61,474 nucleotides of DNA from Verrucomicrobiia bacterium (lineage in GTDB: Bacteria; Verrucomicrobiota; Verrucomicrobiia; JADLBR01), in contig JADLBR010000382.1 of the NCBI GenBank assembly GCA_020847615.1, positions 1 to 61,474 on the forward strand, read 5' to 3'. The notes under the pieces were generated by a model. That model was given only the letters and a program-made list of their open reading frames with translations, searched no databases and had not been told where the DNA came from. This document shows positions 12,177 through 42,302 of the stretch, piece after piece. A program made the position numbers and the translations under genes. Positions within the stretch are counted from its first letter, which is position 1. Each line of letters starts with the position of its first letter.

Positions 12177-13190
12177 ATGGGCACCGTCGAAGTCTCGATC
12201 CACGACTCTCAGTGGCCCTCCCGCTGGCAGAGGGCGCTCGGCGCTTGTCTCCGCAATCGGACCGTCGATGCGCGCTTCCATTACGAGTCGCCGGCGCAAA
12301 CCGCCGCCTGGCTCGCGCTCCATGAGTCCCATTCGCCCGCCCGCCTCGATCCCGCCGTCGCCAAGATCTATCCCGACGCCGTCTCGCGATGCCTCGCCCG
12401 CGGCCCTAGGCCCGCCCGCCTCGCCAGCCTCGGTTGCGGCGGCGGACAGAAAGACATCGAAGCGCTCCGGGCATCGGGCGCTTCGGCCTACGCCGCGATC
12501 GACGCGTCGCCCGGCATGGTCATCGAGGCCCTCGATCGCGTCCGGGCCGCTCTGCCCGCGGTAACCGCCCGCGGCCTCGTCGCGGACCTTCACGCCACGG
12601 GCGACATCGCCTCGTGGCTGGGCGAGACCCTGCCCCGCCATGAGCCCACACTGTGGCTGGGTTTCGGGATCGTCCCCAACCTCCCGGCACCCGAGATACC
12701 CCACCTGCTTGGCTCCCTGCTCCGCCAGTCCGATGACGCCCTCCTCCTGGGCGCCAACCTCATCCCCGGCAGAGATCCCGAGGCCGAGATGGCCGCCATC
12801 CTCCCCCAGTACGACAATCAACCCACCCGGCGATGGCTGGCGCTCCTCCCAGGATCCCTCGGCATCCCCGCGGCGCCCGCGGACCTCCAATTCTCCCTCC
12901 TTGCGCCCGATAATGGACGCCCCTGGCGCGTCGCGGTAGAACTTCCCATTCGCCTCGACTGCCGCGTCCCCCTTCCCGGCGAATCCATCACTCTGGCGGC
13001 CGGTGAATCCCTCACCCTTTTCGTTTCCAACCGATTCACGCCGGACGATATCGCCAGCCTCGCCGGAATGGCGGGTCTTCGGATCGCGGCCTCGATGATC
13101 GCGCCGTCCGAAGAAGAGGGCGTCTTCGAGATCCGATCCGCCGGTCCCCCAACGGCTTTCGGGTTGCGGCGCCCGGATTCCCCGCGATGA
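12177..13190 (+). CDS. SAM-dependent methyltransferase, EgtD-like (histidine N-methyltransferase fold)
   Basis: About 337 residues, starting at ATG 12177. The N-terminal region (RFHYESPAQTAAWLALHE) is followed by a glycine-rich SAM loop, ASLGCGGGQKD, at about residue 84, then AAIDASPGMV (acidic/hydrophobic strand 2) and GFGIVPNLP. The overall layout resembles the EgtD/histidine-alpha-methyltransferase-like branch of class I methyltransferases, but the diagnostic histidine-binding residues are not clear. It ends 7 bases before the secreted glycoside-hydrolase gene, so they probably form one transcript. The substrate is unknown. Confidence 0.75.
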   Translation: MGTVEVSIHDSQWPSRWQRALGACLRNRTVDARFHYESPAQTAAWLALHESHSPARLDPAVAKIYPDAVSRCLARGPRPARLASLGCGGGQKDIEALRASGASAYAAIDASPGMVIEALDRVRAALPAVTARGLVADLHATGDIASWLGETLPRHEPTLWLGFGIVPNLPAPEIPHLLGSLLRQSDDALLLGANLIPGRDPEAEMAAILPQYDNQPTRRWLALLPGSLGIPAAPADLQFSLLAPDNGRPWRVAVELPIRLDCRVPLPGESITLAAGESLTLFVSNRFTPDDIASLAGMAGLRIAASMIAPSEEEGVFEIRSAGPPTAFGLRRPDSPR

Positions 13191-13197
13191 TCCGACC

Positions 13198-15114
13198 ATG
13201 CCCCCGCCCCGCGAGAAAGTATCCGCCGCGCGCAGCAACACGCCGGCGCGTGCCCCCGGGCGCACCGCCCGCCTGACGGCGTGCCTCGTGATGCTCGTTG
13301 CCGCGGCACCCGCGGCCGACTACGTCGCAATCGCCAAGGGCACCGGCGGCGCCTGGTGCTTCCAGCGGGGCAGCGAGAAGTTCTTGTCGATGGGCATCTG
13401 CCACATCGCGGAGCGAGAGGACGCCCGGGGGGGAACCGGGCGCTTCTACGACGGCGCCACTCTTCGCGGCGGCGCGCCGGCATGGGCCTCTCTCGTCCAG
13501 GAGCGCATGTCCGCATGGGGCTTTAACACGGCCGGGGCCTGGTGCAGCGAGTCCGTCTACGAGAAGGCCAATTGGCAGACGCGCTATGTCTGGCTGGGAG
13601 CCGAAGTCGGCGGCATCCGAGCGCGATTACTCAATGTCTTTTCCGAGGGCTACGGGGAAAAGGTGGACGAGTTGTGCGCCAAGTTCGTCGCGCCACACAG
13701 GGACGAGGCCCGCCTCGTCGGCTGGTTCCTGGACAACGAGCTTCCGTGGTATGGCGAGTTCGGCTGGTTCACCGACCCCGACCGGAGCCTGCTGGACCTC
13801 GCCCTGGCCCTTCCCGCAAGCGACCCGAATCGCGCCGAGGCGGTCGCGTTCTTGAAGCTCCATTACATCGACTTCGCCAGATTCGCGGCCCAGTGGGACT
13901 GCGCCGCCCGATCCTGGGAAGATCTCGCCCGGGGGGGCACCGCGCGGGCGACGACCAGGCGCGCCGACGCCGCCAAGGACCTCTGGGCCGGCCGAGTCGC
14001 GGAACGATTCTTCAAGGTCTGCACCGCCGCCGTCCGCAGGCACGATCCCAACCATCTGATCTTGGGGTGCCGCTTCGCCGGCAACGCCCCGGGCCCCGTG
14101 ATCGCCGCCTGCGCAAGGTACTGCGACGTCGTATCCATCAATCGATATCAGAAAGACGGGCATTTCGACGCGCCCTGGTGGGATGCCCTTTACGCGATCG
14201 CGCAGAGACCCATCCTCGTCACCGAGTTCTCGTGGCGCGCGACCGAAAATCGCTCCGGCAACCGAAACACCCTCGGCGCCGACGTCACCGTCCCCTCGCA
14301 AGTCGATCGCGCCGAGCGATACCGGACGTACGTGCGGCCCATGATGTGCCTCCCCTACATCCTCGGGATGCACTGGTTCCAGTGGGCCGATGAACCCGAA
14401 AACGGGCGCTACGACGGCGAGGACTCGAACTACGGCCTCGTGGACTGGCGGGACGAACCCTACGAGGAGTTGGTCGCCGCCGCGAGAGCGACGCACGCTT
14501 CGATGCCCGCGCCCGACGCGCGCGGGGGCGCACTGCCCCCCGCCGGCGATCCCGCGGACCTCCTCCGCTGGACGGCCCGGCCCCTGGCCTCGTTGCAGGA
14601 GGGCTCCCTCGCGGACCCCTTGGAACTGGCGCGGGCCGACGCCGCGCCGTCCATCTCACTCGATGAAAAGGCCGGCACCCGCGCCACGGCCAGCCGCGAG
14701 GGCGATGCCTGGCGCATCGGGTACGACAGCGGAACCGGCTGGGGCTTCAACGCCGAGTGGCCCATCCCCCCCGGGACCGCCCTCGCTGGCGCACAGACCC
14801 TCCGCCTGCGCGGCGGCGCCACGCCGGGCGTGAAGTGCCATGCCATCCTCTTCGAGCAGGGCGACCACGATCCCCAACACGCCGCCACCGACAAGGCCGA
14901 TGGCGAGTGCTGGATGCTCGGCCCCATCGACGCCGCCCGCCTCGCCGGCGGCATCGCCCTCGACCTCGCCGAGGCCGAGCTCAACCTCTACCACGGAAAC
15001 CAGCGCGGCAATCGCCGCATCGACCTCGACGGCCTCCGCGCCGCCGGTCTCTACTTCTCCTCTGGCCAGGGAACCGGATCGGTCCAGATCTCGGCCTTCA
15101 CCTTGGCCGAATAA
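13198..15114 (+). CDS. secreted GH-A clan glycoside hydrolase (agarase/beta-galactosidase-like)
   Basis: A 638-residue protein with an N-terminal signal (a basic stretch then LTACLVMLVAAAPAADY). The TIM-barrel region shows a GH-A clan layout: acid/base Glu181 in GWFLDNELPW and nucleophile Glu343 in ILVTEFSWRATEN, plus NHLILGCRF and MHWFQWADEPENGRYDGED. This pattern resembles GH50/GH42-like agarases and galactosidases. A C-terminal region of about 180 residues (from about 455) is a beta-sandwich-like module. It should act outside the cytoplasm on a galactan- or agar-like polysaccharide; the precise GH family is not certain. The start ATG 13198 is close behind the methyltransferase gene. Confidence 0.78.
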   Translation: MPPPREKVSAARSNTPARAPGRTARLTACLVMLVAAAPAADYVAIAKGTGGAWCFQRGSEKFLSMGICHIAEREDARGGTGRFYDGATLRGGAPAWASLVQERMSAWGFNTAGAWCSESVYEKANWQTRYVWLGAEVGGIRARLLNVFSEGYGEKVDELCAKFVAPHRDEARLVGWFLDNELPWYGEFGWFTDPDRSLLDLALALPASDPNRAEAVAFLKLHYIDFARFAAQWDCAARSWEDLARGGTARATTRRADAAKDLWAGRVAERFFKVCTAAVRRHDPNHLILGCRFAGNAPGPVIAACARYCDVVSINRYQKDGHFDAPWWDALYAIAQRPILVTEFSWRATENRSGNRNTLGADVTVPSQVDRAERYRTYVRPMMCLPYILGMHWFQWADEPENGRYDGEDSNYGLVDWRDEPYEELVAAARATHASMPAPDARGGALPPAGDPADLLRWTARPLASLQEGSLADPLELARADAAPSISLDEKAGTRATASREGDAWRIGYDSGTGWGFNAEWPIPPGTALAGAQTLRLRGGATPGVKCHAILFEQGDHDPQHAATDKADGECWMLGPIDAARLAGGIALDLAEAELNLYHGNQRGNRRIDLDGLRAAGLYFSSGQGTGSVQISAFTLAE

Positions 15115-15118
15115 ACCC

Positions 15119-15865
15119 TCAGAGGTTCCAGCCGCCACCCACCACGATATTCGAGCCGTTCACGTAGCCGCTCTCCGGTCGCACCAGAAACCGGATCGCC
15201 CCGATGACATCCTCGAACGTCCCGAGCCGACCCGCGGGAATCTCGGTCGCCCCATCGGCATCGACGCTATTCTCAAGCATGCCCGGCGAGACCATGTTGA
15301 CCGTAATGCCATGCGGGGCCTCCTGTCGGGCGAAGGACTTCGTCAGGACGGCCACGCCGATCTTCCCGATGTGATAGGACACCGCCAGATCCCGGGCCGA
15401 CACTCGCTCGCACGCCGAGTCGCCTATATTCACGACCCGCCCGCCGGGGCTCTGGCGCAGCATTGGCAACGCAGCCCGTGTCGCGAAAAAGCACGCGCCA
15501 ACCGTGCTGTCCAGCCCCTCGCGCCATTCGTCCTCCCGCAGTTCACCCAGGCCCTTCCGGTGATAGATACCCGAATTGTTGATCAGCACATCGAGCCGAC
15601 CAAACGCCTCGTTAACCCCCGCGATCACCGCGCTCGCCTCCGCCTCACGCGATAGGTCGCCGCCCAGCGCCACGCCCCCCAGTTCGCGCGCGAGTCGCGC
15701 GGCGCCCTCCCCGCTCGTGTGAAAGTGCACCGCAACCCTGAACCCGCCACCGGCCATCGCCCGCGCGATCGCCCCACCCAGCCCCCCCGGCCGCCCGGCC
15801 CCCGTCACCAACACCACCCGACCCCCCCCAGCCAAGCCCTCTTCATTTCCTCGCTTCACCTTCAC
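15119..15865 (-). CDS. SDR oxidoreductase, pteridine-reductase/FolM-like
   Basis: A 248-residue short-chain dehydrogenase: NAD(P) motif TGAGRPGGLGGAIARA (about 20-35), NNSG at about 93 (usual NNAG), Ser in NIGDSA, and catalytic Tyr-xxx-Lys in SYHIGKIG. After strand 2, VAVHFHTSGEGAARLA matches the NADPH-binding pattern of PTR1/FolM (dihydromonapterin or dihydrofolate reductases) better than FabG. Its start overlaps the stop of the DHPS-like gene (ATGA), which also points to pterin chemistry. Likely reaction: NADPH-dependent reduction of a dihydropterin or folate. A generic sugar or fatty-acid SDR cannot be excluded. Confidence 0.85.
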   Translation of the reverse strand: MKVKRGNEEGLAGGGRVVLVTGAGRPGGLGGAIARAMAGGGFRVAVHFHTSGEGAARLARELGGVALGGDLSREAEASAVIAGVNEAFGRLDVLINNSGIYHRKGLGELREDEWREGLDSTVGACFFATRAALPMLRQSPGGRVVNIGDSACERVSARDLAVSYHIGKIGVAVLTKSFARQEAPHGITVNMVSPGMLENSVDADGATEIPAGRLGTFEDVIGAIRFLVRPESGYVNGSNIVVGGGWNL

Positions 15866-16767
15866 CCCTCCCCTTCACCCCCGAAACACCCCATGGCCCT
15901 CGCCACGCCGCGCACCTTCGTCACCTCGTGGGTCCGCAGCAGATCCGTCTTCCCAAGGATCGCCAGCACGGCGAAGAACGCCTCCGCGGACCGCACCTCG
16001 TCCTCGAAGTACTCGAACGCGTGCGGCAGCGCGTGACACGTCGGCCATCCCAGCTCGCGGAGCCGGAAGGTCTCCAGAAAGGTCCGCATCTGGTACCGCA
16101 CCCGCTCCGCGGAATCCTTGAGGTTGCGGTAATAGAACCCCATGCCCGGATCCAGCCAGATGCGCCGCACGCCCGCGCCCTCGGCCAACTCGATCCGACG
16201 GCCAAAGTACTCCCTCAGCACCGCCCCGTGATCCGCCGCGAGCCGAAGGTCGCCGACCCGCCGCACGTTGCCGCCCTGGACAAAGCAGATGATCGCGGCC
16301 GCGTCATGGTCGGCCACCATCCGGAATATCTCGCCGGCTCCCTCGTCGCCGGTGATGTTGACGACCCGCGCGCCCGCGCCCAGGCACGCGCGCGCCACTT
16401 CGGGGCGATACGTCTCCGCCGAAACCAGCAGCCCCGCCGAACTCAGTTCCCGTATCACCGGCAGCAGCGCCGCGCGCTGTCCCTCGTCATCCACGATCCC
16501 GGCGTGCGGCAGGGTCGACTCCGCACCCACGTCCACGATCGCCGCACCCTCGGCCGCTAGGCGCAAGCCCCGCCGCACCGCCTGCTCCGTCGAAAGGCAC
16601 ACGCTCTCCCGGTACCACGAGTCCGCCGAAAGATTGATCACGCCCATGAGATCGGGCCCGGTCCCAGCCGCGAACCTCTTGCCCCCCAGTTCGAAGGACC
16701 TCACCGGGGCGTCCAGCGCACCCCCGTGCCGATCGATCAGCGCCTTCAGCGTCCCAAGATCCAGCAT
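15862..16767 (-). CDS. dihydropteroate synthase-like protein (divergent, pterin-binding TIM barrel)
   Basis: About 301 residues starting at ATG 16767 (GGAGG nearby). Motifs of DHPS/pterin-binding enzymes are present: GVINLSADSWY (family GxxNxTPDSF), DVGAESTLPHAG (GGESTRPGA), VNITGDE (VNDVSG), DPGMGF and LRTHEV. Two residues important for p-aminobenzoate/pterin handling look altered: Arg of STRPGA is Leu here, and the SRK motif is missing at its expected place (CHALPHAFEYFED instead). So it may be a DHPS paralogue with another pterin-linked role, such as a methyl-transfer-type binding protein, rather than the housekeeping FolP. Confidence 0.75.
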   Translation of the reverse strand: MLDLGTLKALIDRHGGALDAPVRSFELGGKRFAAGTGPDLMGVINLSADSWYRESVCLSTEQAVRRGLRLAAEGAAIVDVGAESTLPHAGIVDDEGQRAALLPVIRELSSAGLLVSAETYRPEVARACLGAGARVVNITGDEGAGEIFRMVADHDAAAIICFVQGGNVRRVGDLRLAADHGAVLREYFGRRIELAEGAGVRRIWLDPGMGFYYRNLKDSAERVRYQMRTFLETFRLRELGWPTCHALPHAFEYFEDEVRSAEAFFAVLAILGKTDLLRTHEVTKVRGVARAMGCFGGEGEG

Positions 16768-16910
16768 TACCCGCCTCCGGCGCCCATCGCCCAGCACAGC
16801 GCGAATGCCGCGCACAGCAGCGCCGTGACCGCCACGCCAATCAGCGCGAAGACCCCCCACAGGCGAACCCAGACGCCACCGCAATTCTCGCGCTCGTCCC
16901 CTCGTTCCAT
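16767..16910 (-). CDS. 47-residue single-pass membrane peptide between SulP and DHPS-like genes
   Basis: ATG 16910 follows the SulP stop by one base (TGA-G-ATG). The frame runs 47 codons: a hydrophilic start (MERGDERENC) then one hydrophobic helix (VFALIGVAVTALLCAAFALC) and a glycine-rich end. Its TAA shares the A with the ATG of the DHPS-like gene (TAATG), so it is translationally coupled to both neighbours. No family is recognised. Conserved placement would make it a likely accessory subunit of the SulP protein or a spacer peptide. Confidence 0.6.
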   Translation of the reverse strand: MERGDERENCGGVWVRLWGVFALIGVAVTALLCAAFALCWAMGAGGG

Positions 16911-16911
16911 C

Positions 16912-18759
16912 TCACACCGCCTTCGGCCCGCCCTTCGTCGGATCGTAGAGGATCTCCACCTCGGGCTGGGCCGGCCCGAGTATCTCCTGCGCCCGCTTCA
17001 GCGCGTTCCGGGTCGCGACATTCGGATTCTCCGCCGACCCCATGAAGAAGTTTTCCCTGCCCAAGACGTCGAGCAAACCCGAGTTCCGAACGACCTTGTA
17101 CACGTCCTTCCGCGCCCCGCTCACGATCAGCGCCCGCCCGGTCTCTCTCATGTACCGGATCAGCTCCTCCAGCGCCAGCACGCTGGTCGCGTCCAACCGA
17201 TACGCGTTCCGCATCCTGAGTATGATCACTTTCAGGTTCGGGTCCTCGCACACCCGCCGCGCCTGGTCGCGGAACAGCTCCGAGGCCCCGAAGAACAGTT
17301 CCCCCTCGACGTGCACGATCGATATCTTCGGGTTGGGGCGTTTTGCCGCGCCCTCGATCTCGTAGAGGTGGCCCTGCTCGTTGAAGCTGTACTCGACCAG
17401 CTCCGGCGTGCTCACCTTCCTGAGAAAGAGAACGATCGAAATCAGCGCCCCCAGTATGATCGCAAAGTCCAGGCGGACCAGGAGCGCGGAGATGAAGGTC
17501 GCCAGAAACACCGCGGCGTCGGACTTCGTGGAGCGCATCACGATCCGGATGACGTGCCGGTCGATCAGCGAGAAACCGATGAAGATCACCAGGATAGCGA
17601 GCGCGGGCTTCGGAACGAACTTCAGGAGGGGCCCTATCAGCACCGCGCCGACCGCGCACAGCGCCCCGGACACCATGGCGGCGACCGGCGTTCGTCCCTG
17701 GCTGTCAAAACAGAGCTGCGACCGGGTCAACGACCCGGATGCCGGCATCGCGCCCCCCCACGCGCAGGCCAGGTTCGCCATGCCCATCCCCAGCATCGCC
17801 TGGTTTGTGTTCAGGCGCTCCCCACCCCGCGCCGCCAGCGATTTTCCGATCGACGTCCCCTCCAGGACGCACAGGAACGCCAGCACCATCGCCGACCCGG
17901 CCAGCTGGCTGATCATCCCATAATCCGGGGGCGGGGGCACGAACCGCCATCCCCGGAAATCGATGCCCCCCATCACCGCGACGCGGTCACCAAGGAGACC
18001 CCCAAACCCGGTGCGGGCCATCACCAGGTCCGCGATCACCGCCAGCACCGAGACGGACACGATCGTCGCCACCACGGGCGGCACGCGGGGCACTCGCCGG
18101 ACAAAAAGCCAGTACCCCAGCCCCGTGATCACCGCCACGGCCGCCGACGACACGTGCGTCTCCGGCAGATGCCCCACGGTCATGGCGACCACATCAAAAA
18201 ATGTTCCGCCCTCCGGCATGTCAAACCGTATTCCCAGCACCACGCGCAACTGATTCACCACGATGTAGACGGCCGCGGCGCTGATATAGCCCGTCACGAC
18301 CGATCTCGATATGTACTGCAACAGGTTCGACACCCGCACGAGCGCGCCCATCACCAGAAATGTGCCCGCGAGCGCCACGAGCACCGGCAGCGAGGCCACG
18401 CGCGCCTCCGGCCCGTACCCCAGTCCCAGGAAGATTCCAAAGAGCAGCACGGCCGTCGCGTTCGTCGGCCCCATCACGATGAACCTCGTGCCCGAAAACA
18501 GGGGTCCCACCAGGCCCGCGATGGCGGCGCACAGAATGCCCGTCTCGATCGGCAGCCCGGCCACCATCGCGTAGACGATGGCCTGCGGGAAATCGAGAAG
18601 GGCGAGGTTGCCCCCGGCCCTCAGGTCGGCGCGCCCTTTCTCCGCCGAATATCGGGCCAGTTCTCGCCGCAAGGGCAGCGGGTCCAGCGCGCTGGCCTTC
18701 GCCAGCGCCCAGAGGGACCCGAGACCCCGCCTCGCCTCTCGCCAGATGGTCATCGCCAT
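16912..18759 (-). CDS. SulP family anion permease with STAS domain
   Basis: A 615-residue SulP (SLC26-type) transporter. The transmembrane part (about 45-440) shows the family pattern including DFPQAIVYAMVAGLPIETG and GPTNATAVL, and the membrane domain is followed by a C-terminal STAS domain (about 460-590: FGASELFRDQARRV, VIILRMRNAYRLDATSVLALEELI). Family substrates include sulfate, bicarbonate and other anions; the actual one is not readable. It starts the part of the operon that leads to the mini-membrane peptide and pterin genes, and follows the radical SAM gene by 82 bases. Confidence 0.9.
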   Translation of the reverse strand: MAMTIWREARRGLGSLWALAKASALDPLPLRRELARYSAEKGRADLRAGGNLALLDFPQAIVYAMVAGLPIETGILCAAIAGLVGPLFSGTRFIVMGPTNATAVLLFGIFLGLGYGPEARVASLPVLVALAGTFLVMGALVRVSNLLQYISRSVVTGYISAAAVYIVVNQLRVVLGIRFDMPEGGTFFDVVAMTVGHLPETHVSSAAVAVITGLGYWLFVRRVPRVPPVVATIVSVSVLAVIADLVMARTGFGGLLGDRVAVMGGIDFRGWRFVPPPPDYGMISQLAGSAMVLAFLCVLEGTSIGKSLAARGGERLNTNQAMLGMGMANLACAWGGAMPASGSLTRSQLCFDSQGRTPVAAMVSGALCAVGAVLIGPLLKFVPKPALAILVIFIGFSLIDRHVIRIVMRSTKSDAAVFLATFISALLVRLDFAIILGALISIVLFLRKVSTPELVEYSFNEQGHLYEIEGAAKRPNPKISIVHVEGELFFGASELFRDQARRVCEDPNLKVIILRMRNAYRLDATSVLALEELIRYMRETGRALIVSGARKDVYKVVRNSGLLDVLGRENFFMGSAENPNVATRNALKRAQEILGPAQPEVEILYDPTKGGPKAV

Positions 18760-18841: not shown

Positions 18842-20098
18842 TCACCCCCGGGGCGCGCGCGCCATCATGGCCATGACCTCCGCCGGCGCACGCCCCGCAT
18901 CCAGCAGCCTCGACATCGCCCGCATGTGCGGATCGATGTGACGGAAGAACCGCTTGTACCCCGCGCACAGATAATTCAATCCCGGCTCGCCGTCCGGCGC
19001 CCTCAGGAACCGGTGCTTCGGGCACTCGCCATGGCATGCGAACCTCACATCGCACTCCCTGCAATGCCGCGGCAACCCCTCGCGTTTATCCAGCCCAAAC
19101 TTCACCTGACGGGCAGAATTGACCATCTCGTCCAGCGTCGCCGACACGACATTGCCCAGCGGAAAGCCCGGATACACGTAGTGGTCGCAGGGGTAAACGT
19201 CCCCGTTGTGCTCGATCGCCAGCGACGAGCCGCAGACCTCGGAGAAAACGCATGTCCCCGCCCCCGACCCACTCCAGTTGCCCAGCGCCGCATCGAACAC
19301 ATTCACGAACACCCGCCCCACGTCCTTGCGCACCCACTCGTCGAACACCGCGATCAGGAATTTCCCGTACTGTGCGGGCTGCACGCTCCACTCTGTCACC
19401 GGCGCGCCATCCCCCCCTGCGGCCCCCGGGCCGGGCGGCATCGCCAGCCCGAGCCCCGCGGCCCTCCTCTCCACCAGCGGGATGAACTGCAGGAACCTGG
19501 CACCCATCCCCTTCAGAAACTCGTATACCTCCAGCGGGTGCCTCGCGTTGAGACGGTTGACCACCGTCATCGCGTTGAACTCCACCCCGTGCCGGACCAG
19601 CACCTCCAGGCCGCGCATCACCCGCTCGAATGTCGCCGCCCCGCGCTTGTCCACCCGGTACGCGTCATGCAGCCGCCCCGGCCCATCCACGCTCAGCCCC
19701 ACCAAAAAATCATTCTCCTTCAGAAACCGCCCCCACCCATCATCCAACAGCGTGCCGTTCGTCTGAAATGCATTCCTTATCGTCCTGCCCCCCGAATACC
19801 GCCGCTGCAACTCGACGGCCCTGCGGAAAAAATCCACCCCCACCCGCGTCGGCTCCCCCCCCTGCCACGCGAAATGCACCACGTCGCCATCCTGCGACCC
19901 GATGTACTGCCGGATGAACGATTCGAGCACGCCCTCCCCCATCCTGAAGGACTCGCCGATCGGGAACAGGGCCTCTTTCTCGAGATAAAAACAGTAAGTG
20001 CAATTCAGATTGCATATCGGACCCATGGGTTTGGCCATCACATGAAACGGCGCCCGCCGCCCCTGGGGGCGTCCCTCCGTCTGTCGGCCCTCGGCCAT
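18842..20098 (-). CDS. anaerobic sulfatase-maturating enzyme-like radical SAM/SPASM protein
   Basis: A 418-residue radical SAM protein with the [4Fe-4S] motif CNLNCTYC (about residue 29-36), AWQGGEPTRVGVDFF, and Cys-rich SPASM C-terminus (CVFSEVCGSS, GDVYPCDHYVYP, CRECDVRFACHGECPKH). It matches the anSME family, which oxidises a Cys or Ser in sulfatases to formylglycine under anaerobic conditions. N-terminal start MAEGRQ at 20098 is used; an internal MAKPMGP (20038) matches usual anSME starts. No sulfatase gene lies in this window. Its targets must be encoded elsewhere, consistent with sulfated-polysaccharide breakdown. Confidence 0.88.
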   Translation of the reverse strand: MAEGRQTEGRPQGRRAPFHVMAKPMGPICNLNCTYCFYLEKEALFPIGESFRMGEGVLESFIRQYIGSQDGDVVHFAWQGGEPTRVGVDFFRRAVELQRRYSGGRTIRNAFQTNGTLLDDGWGRFLKENDFLVGLSVDGPGRLHDAYRVDKRGAATFERVMRGLEVLVRHGVEFNAMTVVNRLNARHPLEVYEFLKGMGARFLQFIPLVERRAAGLGLAMPPGPGAAGGDGAPVTEWSVQPAQYGKFLIAVFDEWVRKDVGRVFVNVFDAALGNWSGSGAGTCVFSEVCGSSLAIEHNGDVYPCDHYVYPGFPLGNVVSATLDEMVNSARQVKFGLDKREGLPRHCRECDVRFACHGECPKHRFLRAPDGEPGLNYLCAGYKRFFRHIDPHMRAMSRLLDAGRAPAEVMAMMARAPRG

Positions 20099-28338: not shown

Positions 28339-30528
28339 TCAGCCGCCGCCCAGTCCCAGCCGCTCGTTCAGTTGCTCGAGGATCTCGCGGGCGGCCACCG
28401 GGAGCACCGTCCCGGGACCGAATACCGCCGCGGCCCCCTTGCTATAAAGGAAGTCGTAGTCCTGAGCCGGGATGACGCCGCCCACGACGACCATGATGTC
28501 TTCCCGCCCCAGTTTGCCAAGCTCCTCCGCAAGCTGGGGCAGGAGCGTCTTGTGGCCGCCCGCCAGGCTGCTGATGGCCACGACGTGCACGTCGTTTTCC
28601 ACGGCCATCCGCGCGGTCTCCTCCGGGGTCTGGAAAAGCGGTCCGATGTCCACGTCGAACCCCATGTCCGCGTACGCCGTGGCGACCACCTTCGCGCCGC
28701 GGTCGTGGCCGTCCTGGCCGATCTTGGCGATCAGGATCCTGGGCCTCCGGCCCTCCTCGGCGGCGAACGCGTCGGTCATGCCCCGAATCGCCCCGATCTC
28801 CTCGCTCTCGCCAAACTCGGTCTGGTACACGCCCGAGATCGACCGGATCTGGGCCTTGTGGCGCCCGAAGATCTTCTCCAGCGCGAAGGAGATCTCGCCG
28901 AGGGAGGCGCGGGCGCGCGCGGCGTCCACCGCCAGCTCGAGCAGGTTGCCCTCGCCCTTCTCGGCGCACCGGGTCAGCGCGGCAAGGGCCGCGCGCGCCC
29001 GCTCCCCGTCCCGCTCGGTTCGCAGCCTCGCCAGCCGCTTGATCTGCGCCTCGCGCACCGCCGTGTTGTCCACCTCGAGGACCTCGATCTCCTGCGGCTT
29101 GTCGAGGCGATAGCGGTTGACGCCCACGATGGTCTCGCGCCCCGAGTCGATCCACGCCTGGCGCCGCGCGGCCGCCTCTTCGATCCGCAGCTTGGGCAGG
29201 CCGGTCTCGATCGCCTTGGCCATGCCGCCCAGGGCCTCGATCTCCTGGATGTGCGCCCAGGCGCGCCGCATCAGCATCCCGGTCAGGGCCTCCACGTAAT
29301 ACGACCCGCCCCACGGGTCGATCACGTTGCAGATGCCCGTCTCCTCCTGGAGGTAGAGCTGCGTGTTGCGCGCGATGCGCGCCGAGAAATCGGTCGGCAG
29401 CGCGATCGCCTCGTCGAGCGAGTTGGTGTGCAGCGACTGGGTGTGGCCCAGCGCCGCGGCCATCGCCTCGACGCAGGTGCGCACCACGTTGTTGAACGGG
29501 TCCTGCTCGGTGAGGCTCCACCCGCTGGTCTGGCTGTGCGTGCGGAGCGCCATCGACTTCGGGTTCTTCGGGTTGAACCCCTTGACCAGCCTGGCCCACA
29601 GCGCGCGGGCCGCGCGCATCTTGGCCACCTCCATGAAGAAGTTCTTGCCCTGCGCCCAGAAGAACGACAGCCGGGGCGCGAACGCGTCGATGTCGATCCC
29701 CGCCTTCAGGCCCGCGCGCACGTACTCCAGCCCGTCGGCCAGCGTGTAGGCCATCTCCAGGTCCGCGGAGGCCCCCGCCTCCTGCATGTGATAGCCCGAG
29801 ATGCTGATGCAGTTGAACTTGGGCATCTGCCGCGAGGTGTAGGCAAAGATGTCCGCGATGAGTCGCATCGATGGTCCGGGCGGATAGATGTAGGTGTTCC
29901 GGACCATGTACTCTTTGAGGATGTCGTTCTGGATGGTCCCGGAGAGGTCGGCCAGCCTCACGCCCTGCTCCTCGGCGGCCACGATGTAGAACGCCATGAC
30001 CGGCAGCACGGCGCCGTTCATCGTCATCGAGACCGACATCTTGTCCAGCGGGATCCCGTCAAAGAGGATCTTCATGTCCAGCACGGAGTCGATCGCGACC
30101 CCCGCCTTGCCCACGTCGGCGAAGGCCCGCGGGTGGTCGGAGTCATAGCCCCGGTGCGTCGGCAGATCGAACGCGACCGAGAGCCCCTTCTGCCCGGCCG
30201 CCAGATTGCGGCGGTAGAACGCGTTGCTCTCCTCGGCGGTCGAGAATCCGGCGTACTGCCGCACGGTCCACGGCCGGGTGACGTACATGGTCGCGTACGG
30301 ACCCCGGAGATACGGGGGCATGCCGGGCATCCCGCCCAGATGCTCCAGGCCCTCGATGTCCTCCTGGCCAAAGAGCGGCATCACGTCGACCTGCTCCATG
30401 GTCTCCCACACCCAATCCTCGAGCCGCTTGCCCGTCTCCTTCTCGAGGCGGCCCCTCCACTCCTCCCGAGTGGGACGGGCGACCGGCGGATCGAAATCCA
30501 CCTTCGTGAAATCAGGGAAGTCGCTCAT
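28339..30528 (-). CDS. mutB: methylmalonyl-CoA mutase, large (catalytic) subunit
   Basis: A 729-residue protein, normal for the family. Its ATG 30528 overlaps the small-subunit stop (ATGA). The substrate barrel begins around residue 75 ([27 protein letters not shown]) and has [32 protein letters not shown]. The cobalamin domain near the C-terminus holds [20 protein letters not shown], with the DxHxxG lower ligand His. It interconverts succinyl-CoA and (R)-methylmalonyl-CoA using adenosylcobalamin. Downstream epimerase and decarboxylase indicate flow toward propionyl-CoA. Confidence 0.95.
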
Positions 30529-32678
30529 GCGGCCACCCCCACTCGCTTCGCCAGGCGCGTCAGCGTCTCGAGGGCGTCGGCGCGCACGTGTATGAAATCG
30601 TCCACCCCGGCGGCCTTGTGCGCCTCGATCTGATCCGCCGGGTATCCCGCCAGCACCATGACCGCGCCCGGAATGCGCGCGCGGACCGCCGCCACCAGCC
30701 CCGGCACCAGATCCGGATAGGTCTCGTCGGTCGAACAGATCACCACGATCCCGGCGCCCGATTCGGCGGCGGCCGCCGCGGCGGCATCGGCATCCGCGTA
30801 GCCCGCACCGCCCACGACATGAAAACCACCCACCTCGAAGAACCCTCGGCTGAAATCCGCCCTCGCCTTGTGCTGGCGCACGGGCCCCATCGTCGCCAGG
30901 AACACCCGGGGCCGCCCCCCCGCCTGTCGCCCGTGCCCGATGACGGCCAGGCGCAATCTCTCGTAGCCCTCGGCCACCCGGCATATGGTCACGCGCGGCA
31001 TCGGCTCGTCGGGGTGATCCTGGATCCGCAGCGTGCGCGTCACTTCGCCGAGCGTCGCGCCGGCGCGGACCGCGGAGACGCACGCCTCCAGGACCTCGCC
31101 CGGCCCCGCCTCGACGATCCGGGAAAGGCCCGCCATCACCTCGGTGTTTCGCCGGTTGTCCGCGGAGGTCCGGTAGGCCTCGATCTGCGCCGACCTCCTC
31201 TTCCGGAAGGCCGCCCCGTCGAAGTTCGACCCGGGCAGGGGTTCCTCCGGCCCGTGGGCATACTGGTTCGTCCCCACGATGATCTTGCTGCGCTGCGCGA
31301 CCTTCTTGGCCATGGTCTCCGCGGCCGCCGCGATCTCCGCCTGCGGGAAACCCGCGCGCATCGCCGCCGCCATACCCCCGCGCCGCTCCACCTCCTGGAA
31401 GAGCGCCCAGCCCCGCTGCGCCAACTCCGCCGTGAGGCTCTCGATGAACCACGAGCCGCCCGCCGGGTCGATCACCCGATCCAGCCTGCATTCCTCGTGC
31501 AGGATCAGTTGCGTGTTGCGGGCGATCCGCCGCGAGAACTCGTCCGAGAATCGCACGACCTCGTCGAATGGCCCCACCTGCATGCTGTCGCAGCCGCCCA
31601 CCACGCCGGAGAAGGCCTCCGTCGTCGTCCGCAGCATGTTGACGTACGGGTCGAATATCGTCTTGTTCCACTGCCCCGTCCGGACGTGGATCCGCAGCCG
31701 CTGGGCTTCCTCCGAGCCGCCGAGCACCTGCACGAGTCGCGCCCACAGCATCCGGGCCGCCCGCAGTTTCGCGATCTCGACAAAGAACCTCGATCCCACC
31801 GTCAGGGCGAACCTCATGTGGGTCGCCACCTGGTCCACCGTCATCCCCCGGCGCATCATCTCGCGGAGGTACTCCGCCCCGGTCGCCAGCGTGAATCCCA
31901 GGCCGTGGACCGCGTGGCCGCCGCCCTCGAACCACGCCCGCCCGTGCACGCAGATCGTCTCCAGCCCGGGCGCGTTCTCCGCCGCCCAGGCCAGCAGTTC
32001 CCGCATCTCGTCGTACGCCTGTCCGAAGGAGTGCGGCAGCGCCCCCTCGTGGGCCGCCACCCCGATCGGGTCCATCTCGATGCAGCCGCGCAGCTTCGCC
32101 AGCGACTTGCCGCGCTTCCTCGCCAGCGCCACCAGCAGCGCCGCGAAGGGCAGCGCCGACGAACCCGACCGCACGAATAGCGAGACCTTCTCCAGATCGA
32201 TGCCATCCAGCGCCTTGTGCAGATCCTCAAGCGTCGCGACCGACATGCCCCACACGCCCACGTCGCCCGGCTTGGCCCAGTCCGGGTCGTGCCCGTTCCG
32301 CGTCGCGCGGTCCAGCACCATGTTGATCCCGTTCAGGCCGCGGTCCACGTCATGCCGCGCCGCCATGTTGAATTCCAACGGCTCGGGATACGTCAATTCC
32401 TGCGAGATCTCCCACCCGTCCTCCAGGTGGCCGGAGGCCCGCGCCCCGCGCACGAAGGGCGCGAAGCCAGGCATCGAGCGCGCAAACGCCAGCCCCCCGA
32501 CATCCTCCGCCCGATACAGCGGCTTCAGGTCGATCCCCTCCACCAGGCGCGTCACGAGCCGCTTGTCAAAAGACGCGCCCCCCAGCGACTCCTCGGCAAG
32601 CGCCCGCCACTCGGCGTATCCCGCCGGGGGAAACTCCGAGAGCAACTCGCCGTCGCTCGCCTGAACCTCTGCGCTCAT
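30525..32678 (-). CDS. mutA: methylmalonyl-CoA mutase, small subunit
   Basis: About 717 residues, starting at ATG 32678. It is homologous to the large subunit in the barrel ([35 protein letters not shown]) but its C-terminal domain lacks the cobalamin-binding DxHxxG ([21 protein letters not shown] instead), as expected for the non-catalytic beta subunit. It pairs with MutB to form the heterodimer. As the first gene of the eight-gene operon it carries the promoter region just upstream. Annotated starts further upstream would run into that promoter. Confidence 0.92.
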
Positions 32679-39765: not shown

Positions 39766-42302
39766 AGACACCACCGATCATCGCAGCCCTCGCCCTCGTC
39801 GCGATCACCGCACCGGCCCGCCCCGCGCCGCCGGACCCCGAGGCCGAGGCCATCGAGGCCGTCCGCCGCACGATCCAGGACCAGATCTTCCCCGTCGCAG
39901 AGATCAAGGCGCGCGCCTTCCTGTCCGGTTTTCCGAAGAGCCCATCCGCCCCCCTCGCGCGGCAGTGGCTCGCCACGGCCCAGCACGAGCAGGGCCGGCA
40001 CGCCGAAGCCCTCGCCACCCTCGATCCACTCCTCAAGGACGCCCCCCGGAAAAAGCCCAGCCCCGAGGCCCTCCACCTCGCCGCGGACGCCCATTCCGAC
40101 CTCGGGCGATTCCCCGAGGCCGAGCGTCTCTACCGCGACCTCCTCACCCTCAATCCCGATTACCCGCGCGCCCCGGAGGCCCGGCTCGGCCTCGCGTGGA
40201 CCCTCCTCAACCTCGGCGGGGACAAGGCCACCGAGGGCGAGGGCATCCTCGATGTCATCGCGCGCAGCCCCGCTTCCCCAGACTTCGCACAGGGCGCCCG
40301 CGTGCTCCAGGCCCGCTGGCAGCTCCGCGCCGGCCGTTCCACCGACGCCGCGCAGACCTTGACCGACCTCCTCGTCTCCCAACCCGCGCCCCCCGCCCGG
40401 CTCGAGGCCCATTTCTGGCTGGGCGAGATCCTCCTCGCCTCGGGCGACCACGCCAAGGCCCTCGGGCACTTCGAGCAGATCACCTCCGAGCCCGGACCCG
40501 TCCGGCCCGACCTCCTCGTGCAAGCCTGGCTCCGCCACGGCGAGTGCGCCCTCGCCTTGGACGATCCCGGCAAGGCACTCGAATCGCTCGAGAAAGTGCT
40601 CATCCAGGGCGCCGACGAGACCGCCCGGCTCACCGCGGCCCGAAAAATGATCGAGGCCGCCGGCAAGGCCGGCGCGCTCCGCGACACCCTGTCCCGGCTC
40701 AGGCGCATCGCCGACGAGGAGCCCGTCGCCCACGTCGCGGGCCCCACCCTGCTCGCGATCGCCGAGGCCGAACTCGCCTCCCAGCAGGTCGACGCCGCGC
40801 TCGCGACGTGGAACGCCGCCGCCAAGCGCTTCCCCAAGAGCGCCTGGGCCGCCGCCGCCCTGTCGCGCGCGGGCGAGACCATCGCCGCCCGCGGCGACCC
40901 GGATCGCGGCCTCGCCTTGCTCATCGCCGCCGCCGAGCAATCCCCGGACCCCCCACAGGCCGCCGAGTGCCAGTTCCGGTCCGCGGGGATCCTCTTCTCG
41001 CTCGGGCGCTTCGGCGAAGCCCACGACGCTTTCCTGGCCATCTCCGAGAAACCCGAGGCGGCCGCGCTCCACGAAAAGGCGCTCTTCAACGCCATGCTCT
41101 GCCTCTCCCGCCAGGGCAAGGCCGAGGAACTCGTTGCCCTCTATCGTCGCTTCGCCTCGCGATTCCCGGAAAGCCTGCTCAAGGAAACCGCCGTCGCCGA
41201 ACAGGGCCGACTCGAGACCAATCTCCGCCGTGAGGGACAGGCCCGCGCCCGATGGCAGCAGATCCTCGACGACTTCCCGCAATCCCCGAGGCGCCACGTC
41301 ATCCTCTTCGAGATCGCCAAATCGCTCATGCGCGAGGGCAGGCTGGACGAGGCCCTGTCCCAGCTCAACGAGCTCGTGACCCACTACCCCTCGGGAACCC
41401 ACATCCCTGAGGCCCAGTTCCTCGCGCTCGCCGCGCGCAGGCAGCTCGGCACCGATACCCCGGAGGCCTCCATCGCGTCCCTCAAGGACCTCCTCCAGAA
41501 ATTCCCCGACTCGCCCGTCGCCGGCGACATCCTCTTCCGCATCGGCGAGGCCTACTTCACCAGCGAGGACTTCGCCAACGCGCAAACCTGGTTCACCCGC
41601 CTGGCCCGCAATACGCGCAAACACGATCTCGCTGACGACGCCCTCTACTTCGCCGGATTGGCCGCCCTGCGCCGGGACGACCCCGAACCCGCCATCGCCC
41701 TCTTCGAGGAACTCGCCAAAGAGCACCCCAAGTCGACGCGCCTCGGGGAGGCGCGCGTCGGCCAGGGCCACGCCCTCCGGCTGCAGGCCAAGTTCAAGGA
41801 GGCCCTCGCCGTCTATGAGTCCGTCGCCACCATCGCGCCGCCCCCCGCCGCCGAGGTGCTCGCCATGGCCCGCATCGGGGAGGCCGACTGCCATTACCGC
41901 CTCGCGGCCACCGACCCGAAACGCTACGCGCGCGCCACCGCCATCTACGACGAGGTGCTCTCCGAGGAATCCCTGCGCGCCACCCGGCCCGACCTCATCC
42001 ACGAGGCCGGTTGGAAAAAGGGCCAGACGCTCGAGAAGGAGGGCCGCGCCGCAGAGGCGCTCGAGGCATTTACCGACGTCGTCTACGGGGGACAGGAGGG
42101 CGACGCCCCAGCCCCCCGCATCCCGGAATACCACTGGTTTGGCAAGGCCGCATCCGACGCCGCCCGCATCCTCGAGTCCAGCGGGGACTGGGCCGGCGCA
42201 CTCTCCGTCTACCGCCTCGCCGAATCGCTGGGCGGCCCAGATGCCGCCGCCTGGCGCACCCGCCGCCTCAAACTCCAGCGCGAGCACTTCCTGTACGATT
42301 GA
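39762..42302 (+). CDS. large exported TPR-repeat protein
   Basis: An 846-residue protein with a signal peptide (MKTPPIIAALALVAITAPARPAPP). Many tetratricopeptide units follow over its whole length, e.g. RAFLSGFPKSPSAPLARQWL, GRFPEAERLYRDLLTLNPDYP, GRFGEAHDAFLAI and GEAYFTSEDFANAQTWFTRLA. Such proteins act as envelope scaffolds or periplasmic adaptors. Its ATG overlaps the uvrA stop, so translation is coupled even though a DNA-repair role is unlikely. The 3' end slightly overlaps the convergent PilZ-like gene. Confidence 0.85.

What the first reader, a model, noticed from the sequence alone, without database searches (positions are those of the whole stretch)
15119..16910. Divergent DHPS-like protein in an operon with a PTR1/FolM-like SDR, a SulP permease and a mini membrane peptide
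The DHPS-like protein keeps the pterin-binding barrel motifs but lacks the SRK lysine region and the Arg of the STRPGA motif. It is translationally coupled (TAATG, ATGA) to the mini peptide and the SDR. A SulP anion transporter leading such a set is unusual for folate synthesis. The cluster may make or move a modified pterin or use pterin as a methyl carrier.
Basis: partly seen in the sequence, partly recalled or inferred. Interest (0 to 1): 0.6.

Follow-up and report, generated by a model that had tools for sequence, protein, structure and literature searches.

The report
Repurposed folate-enzyme relative in pterin cluster
Bacteria of at least three phyla carry, usually beside their normal folate gene, an altered copy of the enzyme that joins pterin to pABA; it often sits next to one of several unrelated predicted pterin-reducing enzymes and, in Verrucomicrobiota, travels with a methyltransferase, which points to an undescribed pathway making a modified reduced pterin.

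Summary
Window 15862-16767(-) encodes a DHPS paralog; the genome also has canonical folP and folA, so this is not the folate DHPS. It belongs to a distinct family (87 sequences aligned, Verrucomicrobiota and Actinobacteria; one divergent copy on a Roseibium plasmid). The family keeps the pterin/pyrophosphate residues but invariantly replaces the pABA-side and catalytic motifs. Its neighbour is a predicted dihydropterin reductase of a different type in each phylum: TmpR-like SDR (Verrucomicrobiota), Rv2671-like RibD_C (Actinobacteria), FolM/PruA-type SDR after a folB-like gene (Roseibium). In 93 class relatives, 17 of 18 genomes with the SDR and 27 of 28 with an EgtD-like methyltransferase (also in this window, 12177-13190 +) have the paralog. 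The SulP permease and mini-peptide are shared only with the one other genome of the genus and are not core. Best reading: the paralog joins hydroxymethyl-dihydropterin to something other than pABA, the reductase makes the tetrahydro form, and in Verrucomicrobiota the methyltransferase tailors it. The module is well supported; its chemistry and product are inferred.

The parts
15862..16767 (-). DHPS paralog (DHPS-like protein, 301 aa), core gene
   Evidence: PF00809 4.9e-32, TIGR01496 below cutoff; family alignment of 87; AlphaFold model pLDDT 90 matching DHPS structures, E 2.5e-18; tree
15119..15865 (-). SDR, predicted dihydropterin reductase (TmpR-like; Asp149-Tyr164-Lys168), overlapping the DHPS-like gene by GTGA
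   Evidence: NF012208 TmpR 206 bits, cutoff 325; conserved next to or with the DHPS-like gene
12177..13190 (+). SAM-dependent methyltransferase, Methyltransf_33/EgtD-like; co-occurs with the DHPS-like gene
   Evidence: PF10017 45.7 bits, cutoff 23; 27 of 28 genomes with it have the DHPS-like gene; EgtD-type enzymes are the closest solved relatives; start at ATG 12177 inferred from homologs
16767..16910 (-). 47-aa hydrophobic mini-peptide (probably one TM helix); TAATG overlap with DHPS-like; recognised only in the sister genome
   Evidence: (no family)
16912..18759 (-). SulP/STAS anion transporter; same gene order in the sister genome only (82% identical), accessory
   Evidence: PF00916/PF01740; conservation
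18842..20098 (-). anaerobic sulfatase maturase (radical SAM/SPASM) upstream of SulP, probably unrelated to the pterin genes
   Evidence: TIGR03942 494 bits, above cutoff

Best explanation
The gene encodes a neofunctionalised DHPS paralog that is the signature enzyme of a separate branch off the pterin pathway. It binds 6-hydroxymethyl-7,8-dihydropterin pyrophosphate much as DHPS does, but transfers the pterin-methyl group to a nucleophile other than pABA (inferred). A dedicated reductase then reduces the 7,8-dihydropterin product to the tetrahydro form (inferred); this role is filled by different protein families in different lineages: TmpR-like SDR or possibly a stand-alone RibD_C protein in Verrucomicrobiota, Rv2671-like RibD_C in Actinobacteria, FolM/PruA-type SDR in Roseibium. 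In Verrucomicrobiota an EgtD-family SAM methyltransferase modifies the compound (inferred). Shown here: the family, its altered active site, coexistence with canonical folP and often folA, the gene pairing with the reductases, and the co-occurrence with the methyltransferase.
For: Own genome has canonical folP and folA. The family is separate from FolP in the tree and has own near-invariant motifs NLSxDSxYRES, GAES, SxETY, DPGxGFYYxNL, CxAxPHxF, RTHE while keeping Asn45/Asn137/Asp206/Arg278/His280. DHPS fold. SDR directly downstream in 7 Verrucomicrobiota genomes; RibD_C neighbour in 30 of 45 actinobacterial loci, closest solved relative Rv2671, an alternative DHFR of low activity (PMC10812664); Roseibium order folB-like / DHPS-like / SDR with TGX3RXG. 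In 93 relatives, 17 of 18 SDR genomes and 27 of 28 methyltransferase genomes lie within the 33 DHPS-like genomes, Fisher 1e-8 and 1e-16. SDR and the methyltransferase are divergent neighbours in all ten f10 genomes. SDR and stand-alone RibD_C are mutually exclusive in the 33 genomes (17 vs 15, none with both), and again in a further set.
Against: No substrate, product or activity is shown. Fisher values ignore shared ancestry. Stand-alone RibD_C also occurs in genomes without the DHPS-like gene, and its nearest solved relatives are riboflavin-pathway-type reductases. The Verrucomicrobiota SDR lacks the PTR1/FolM arginine. Six DHPS-like genomes lack the methyltransferase, and none of 27 Actinobacteria gave a convincing match, so methylation is not universal. 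A third of actinobacterial loci have no adjacent reductase found. The further set overlaps the relatives in at least one genome (G097 looks the same as G021).
Confidence: 0.58

Rival explanations
1. It is a second, working folate DHPS (backup or sulfonamide-insensitive, Sul-like) and the reductases are backup DHFRs; the cluster makes ordinary folate.
For: DHPS fold and PF00809; partners resemble TmpR and Rv2671, both linked to alternative DHFR activity (PMC10812664); the ten f10 genomes and G083 have the SDR and no PF00186 DHFR.
Against: pABA-side and catalytic residues (loop-2 Arg, SRK Lys, Asp of SVDT) are replaced in 87 of 87; 18 of 33 genomes also have folA, and most have canonical folP; far below the Sul1-4 cutoffs; folate synthesis needs no EgtD-like methyltransferase.
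Confidence: 0.2
2. It is a non-catalytic or regulatory DHPS homolog, as is conceivable for mycobacterial FolP2, that binds pterins and modulates folate metabolism.
For: Loss of the catalytic Lys and Arg; FolP2 of M. tuberculosis is predicted defective in DHPS activity (PMC7809127).
Against: The replacing residues are themselves near-invariant (Tyr52, Arg53, Glu118, Tyr120, Tyr212, Tyr213, Asn215, Cys244), as expected of a new active site; the window protein is closer to FolP1 than to FolP2 (74 vs 43 bits); pairing with reductases in three phyla.
Confidence: 0.12
3. It is a pterin-dependent methyl-transfer enzyme (like MetH/AcsE-type PF00809 proteins) or part of a SulP-linked transport system.
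For: PF00809 includes methyltransferases; SulP precedes it in the window and the sister genome.
Against: Profiles and fold place it with DHPS; MetH scores only 12-16 bits on a profile of the family plus the genome's folP; SulP not conserved beyond the genus.
Confidence: 0.04
4. The product is a tetrahydromonapterin-type cofactor for phenylalanine hydroxylase.
For: FolM-type reductases make such a cofactor in other bacteria (PMC13259868).
Against: PF00351 is present in 6 of 93 relatives, none of which has the DHPS-like gene; a DHPS-type transferase is not needed for monapterin.
Confidence: 0.03

Closest known systems
Dihydropteroate synthase FolP (TIGR01496, PF00809)
   Same: TIM-barrel fold; Asn45, Asn137, Asp206, Arg278, His280 of the pterin/pyrophosphate site
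   Different: Asp of SVDT is Glu, Lys of SRK and Arg of STRP lost, new YRES, GFYYxNL and CxAxPHxF motifs; coexists with canonical folP; different gene neighbours
FolP2 (Rv1207) of mycobacteria
   Same: second, divergent DHPS paralog beside a canonical folP
   Different: the window protein is less similar to it than to FolP1; actinobacterial folP2 clusters with cell-wall genes (PMC1971073), this one with reductases
TmpR / FolM / PTR1 / PruA pteridine reductases
   Same: SDR fold; Asp in place of catalytic Ser and YxxxK; best NCBIfam model TmpR
   Different: TmpR score below cutoff; the Verrucomicrobiota form lacks the TGX3RXG arginine (the Roseibium form has it)
Rv2671 (RibD_C, alternative DHFR of M. 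tuberculosis)
   Same: closest solved relative of the actinobacterial neighbour tested (1e-28)
   Different: the neighbour is below NCBIfam cutoffs and is paired with a DHPS-like gene
EgtD histidine N-alpha-methyltransferase (Methyltransf_33)
   Same: above Pfam cutoff; closest solved relative; Asn of the FGxxPN motif kept
   Different: only about 50 bits; an EgtD Glu (imidazole contact, role from general knowledge) aligns with Phe; co-occurs with the DHPS-like gene
Pterin signalling with PruA and the proposed 2'-O-methylmonapterin of Agrobacterium (PMC13259868)
   Same: reductase-dependent, apparently methylated bacterial pterin
   Different: no DHPS-like enzyme mentioned for that pathway in the passages read

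Membership tests
Dihydropteroate synthase (FolP) | Score above TIGR01496 equivalog cutoff (162.6 bits) | tested here: not met
   116.8 bits; other members 110.7-133.6
Dihydropteroate synthase (FolP) | DHPS TIM-barrel fold | tested here: met
   AlphaFold pLDDT 90.1; the 50 best PDB matches listed are all DHPS or Sul enzymes, best E 2.5e-18
Dihydropteroate synthase (FolP) | Catalytic/pABA-side residues: Asp of SVDT, Arg of STRP, Lys of SRK | tested here: not met
   Glu118 87/87; no Arg at 86; no Lys in the segment in 87/87
Dihydropteroate synthase (FolP) | Pyrophosphate/pterin residues: Asn of the first strand, Asn of IND, Asp of DPG, Arg and His of RVHD | tested here: met
   Asn45, Asn137, Asp206, Arg278, His280 each 87/87
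Dihydropteroate synthase (FolP) | Condenses DHPPP with pABA | not testable with these tools
   needs enzymology
Sulfonamide-resistant Sul1-4 | Score above the NCBIfam exception cutoffs (475-600 bits) | tested here: not met
   48-67 bits
Mycobacterial FolP2 | Closer to FolP2 than to FolP1 | tested here: not met
   2vp8 43 bits vs 1eye 74 bits
Pteridine reductase FolM/PTR1 | TGX3RXG motif | tested here: not met
   window SDR family TGAGR(xx)GLG; the Roseibium partner TGAGKRLG has it
Pteridine reductase FolM/PTR1 | YX3K with Asp replacing the SDR Ser | tested here: met
   Asp149, Tyr164, Lys168 invariant in 10 sequences; the Asp-for-Ser comparison rests on general knowledge of PTR1
TmpR | Score above NF012208 cutoff (325 bits) | tested here: not met
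   206 bits, though the best of 203 models
EgtD (histidine methyltransferase) | Substrate-binding Glu that contacts imidazole | tested here: not met
   Phe in the profile alignment to 7scf; Pfam PF10017 cutoff itself is met

The most novel reading that the evidence does not exclude
A previously unknown pterin cofactor or metabolite, an alternative 'pteroate' with a non-pABA side group, reduced and in Verrucomicrobiota methylated, is made in Verrucomicrobiota, Actinobacteria and some Alphaproteobacteria by a DHPS paralog with interchangeable reductases.
Probability: 0.42. Interest if true: 0.85.

Novelty: new variant of a known kind. Interest (0 to 1): 0.63.

Why it matters
Very few pterin conjugates made by DHPS-type transfer are known (folates and methanopterins; general knowledge). 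A conserved module with a rebuilt second-substrate site, present in cultured Nocardioides, would define a new branch of pterin metabolism that can be tested directly by enzymology and LC-MS. It also warns that genomes annotated with two folP genes or with FolM/RibD-like reductases may carry this pathway. The SDR would be a candidate for the DHFR reported missing in Methylacidiphilum (PMC2474590), if family f10 is that group, which was not verified.

Tried and rejected
Only-DHPS-in-genome: rejected. Folate-only function through loss of folA: rejected as a general rule, 18 of 33 genomes keep folA. Phenylalanine-hydroxylase cofactor: PF00351 never co-occurs. SulP, mini-peptide and sulfatase maturase as core: not seen outside the genus. 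Other conserved flanks (trmB, hisB, queA by stand-alone RibD_C, ribE by SDR) are lineage-specific. Further PF00809 genes of Actinobacteria, first taken for FolP2, do not match the family profile and two read out look like methyltetrahydrofolate-type methyltransferases. Phage collection: no match. Literature: no paper held the terms DHPS, pteridine reductase and Verrucomicrobia together; other searches gave no description of the pairing. A first methyltransferase alignment failed on coordinates and was redone.

Full report
Observation. The genes are real and placed as described. The DHPS-like ORF starts at ATG 16767 (Met1 is conserved in 87 of 87 homologs), shares TAATG with the 47-aa mini-peptide and GTGA (not ATGA) with the SDR. 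Pfam and NCBIfam give Pterin_bind and sub-threshold DHPS for it, SulP+STAS for the leader, and an anaerobic sulfatase maturase further upstream.

Not the folate DHPS. The window's genome holds a canonical folP (G000:C457, 271 bits, with TPDSF, ESSRPG, SIDTSK, SRKSF and RTHD motifs, ftsH ending next to its start), a MetH-size PF00809 protein and a folA. Of 93 class relatives, 33 carry a close homolog of the paralog (52-77% identity), most of them with a second, canonical-type match at about 30% identity. In 44 further genomes nearly all have canonical folP too; the exceptions (G093, G100, G101, G109, G114) are MAGs.

A distinct family. Homologs were found in Verrucomicrobiota and in Actinobacteria, including Nocardioides, Kineosporia and Nanopelagicales; in a 388-genome sample of the phylum all hits lay in the window's class. 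One divergent member (44% identity) lies on a plasmid of Roseibium porphyridii, an alphaproteobacterium. The tree puts 20 family members on one side and 11 FolP on the other, although the family's own branch is only moderately supported (81/46) and long branches meet there. An AlphaFold model (pLDDT 90) matches DHPS structures.

Active site. On an alignment of 87 members against the genome's FolP, the residues that in DHPS hold pterin and pyrophosphate are invariant (Asn45, Asn137, Asp206, Arg278, His280; roles from general knowledge of DHPS structures). The second-substrate side is rebuilt, almost as invariantly: loop 1 YRES instead of SDGG, GAES without the following Arg, Glu118-Thr-Tyr120 instead of Asp-Thr-Ser-Lys, GFYYxNLxD after DPG, and CxAxPHxF instead of SRKSF. 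The Roseibium protein keeps YRE, GAES, SVETY and SHE but not the YYxNL or PHxF motifs, so these last two belong to the Verrucomicrobiota/Actinobacteria part of the family. My inference is a conserved pterin donor with a different acceptor.

Reductase partners. In 7 Verrucomicrobiota genomes (window, G001, G083, G091, G008, G099, G104) the SDR lies 0-27 nt downstream. Its best NCBIfam model is TmpR, a dihydropteridine/dihydrofolate reductase, below cutoff; Asp149, Tyr164 and Lys168 are invariant but the PTR1/FolM arginine is missing (motif definition in PMC1971073 and PMC13259868). In 30 of 45 actinobacterial loci, many of them related Nocardioides, the neighbour is a RibD_C protein; the closest solved relative of the one tested is Rv2671, an alternative DHFR of low activity (PMC10812664). 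In Roseibium the order is folB-like, DHPS-like, SDR, and that SDR has the full TGX3RXG and YX3K signature. So the same kind of predicted partner is recruited from different families in three phyla; this is the strongest argument that a dihydropterin is the substrate.

Phylogenetic profile. Among 93 relatives the SDR ortholog is in 18 genomes, 17 of which have the paralog; the methyltransferase of this window (12177-13190, +) is in 28, 27 of which have the paralog. The one exception in both cases is G002, a 75% complete MAG that has SDR and methyltransferase. SDR and stand-alone RibD_C are exclusive in the 33 (17 and 15; G037, 76% complete, has neither clearly). In 13 further Verrucomicrobiota genomes, at least one of which repeats a relative, 3 have SDR, 7 RibD_C, one (G105) a borderline SDR, two neither; 11 have the methyltransferase. 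Pairs also occur physically: paralog-SDR (window), paralog-methyltransferase (L012, L017, L042, L044, L046), SDR-methyltransferase (all ten f10 genomes, and G003), and all three in L045. Fisher values (1e-8, 1e-16) ignore common descent, so I rely more on the physical pairs and on joint absence of paralog and methyltransferase inside family f4 (G029, G045). Stand-alone RibD_C is also found without the paralog, so its role is the weakest link.

What is not part of it. SulP, mini-peptide and sulfatase maturase keep the same order in the one other genome of the genus and were not seen elsewhere. No phenylalanine hydroxylase goes with the module.

Mechanism and limits. Shown: family, altered site, coexistence with folate genes, gene pairing and co-occurrence. 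Inferred: donor DHPPP, non-pABA acceptor, reduction, methylation. The product is unknown. A PruA-dependent pterin proposed to be 2'-O-methylmonapterin in Agrobacterium (PMC13259868) shows that reduced, methylated pterins are plausible in bacteria. The genome-wide scan used stretches of the window protein and finds near relatives only, and alphaproteobacterial chromosomes could not be searched, so the breadth is a lower bound.

Noticed in passing
L096-L099, L103, L104 (family f10 genomes): The SDR gene is followed directly by a riboflavin synthase (ribE)-like gene and faces the methyltransferase gene divergently; these genomes have no PF00186 DHFR.
   Followed up: partly
L138, L141-L143, L145, L147-L149, L151, L156: The stand-alone RibD_C gene shares its locus with a queA-like gene, directly upstream in the one read out (L141).
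   Followed up: partly
L010, L014 and L048-L051, L055, L057, L058, L060: A trmB-like tRNA methyltransferase gene precedes the DHPS-like gene in both a Verrucomicrobiota family and Nanopelagicales-like Actinobacteria.
   Followed up: no
window 13198-15114 (+): 638-aa protein without Pfam or NCBIfam match lies 7 nt after the methyltransferase gene, between it and the SDR.
   Followed up: no
window 40794-40871 (-): ARAGORN reports a tRNA-like element with a four-base anticodon (tggg) inside long ORFs; probably a false positive.
   Followed up: no
window 28339-31935 (-): Large methylmalonyl-CoA mutase with the mutase and B12 domains after a roughly 500-aa N-terminal part without Pfam match, near a biotinyl-domain protein.
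   Followed up: no
G100 (L041), G101 (L042): MAGs in which the DHPS-like gene is the only PF00809 match (no canonical folP or metH found); incomplete bins or real absence not resolved.
   Followed up: no
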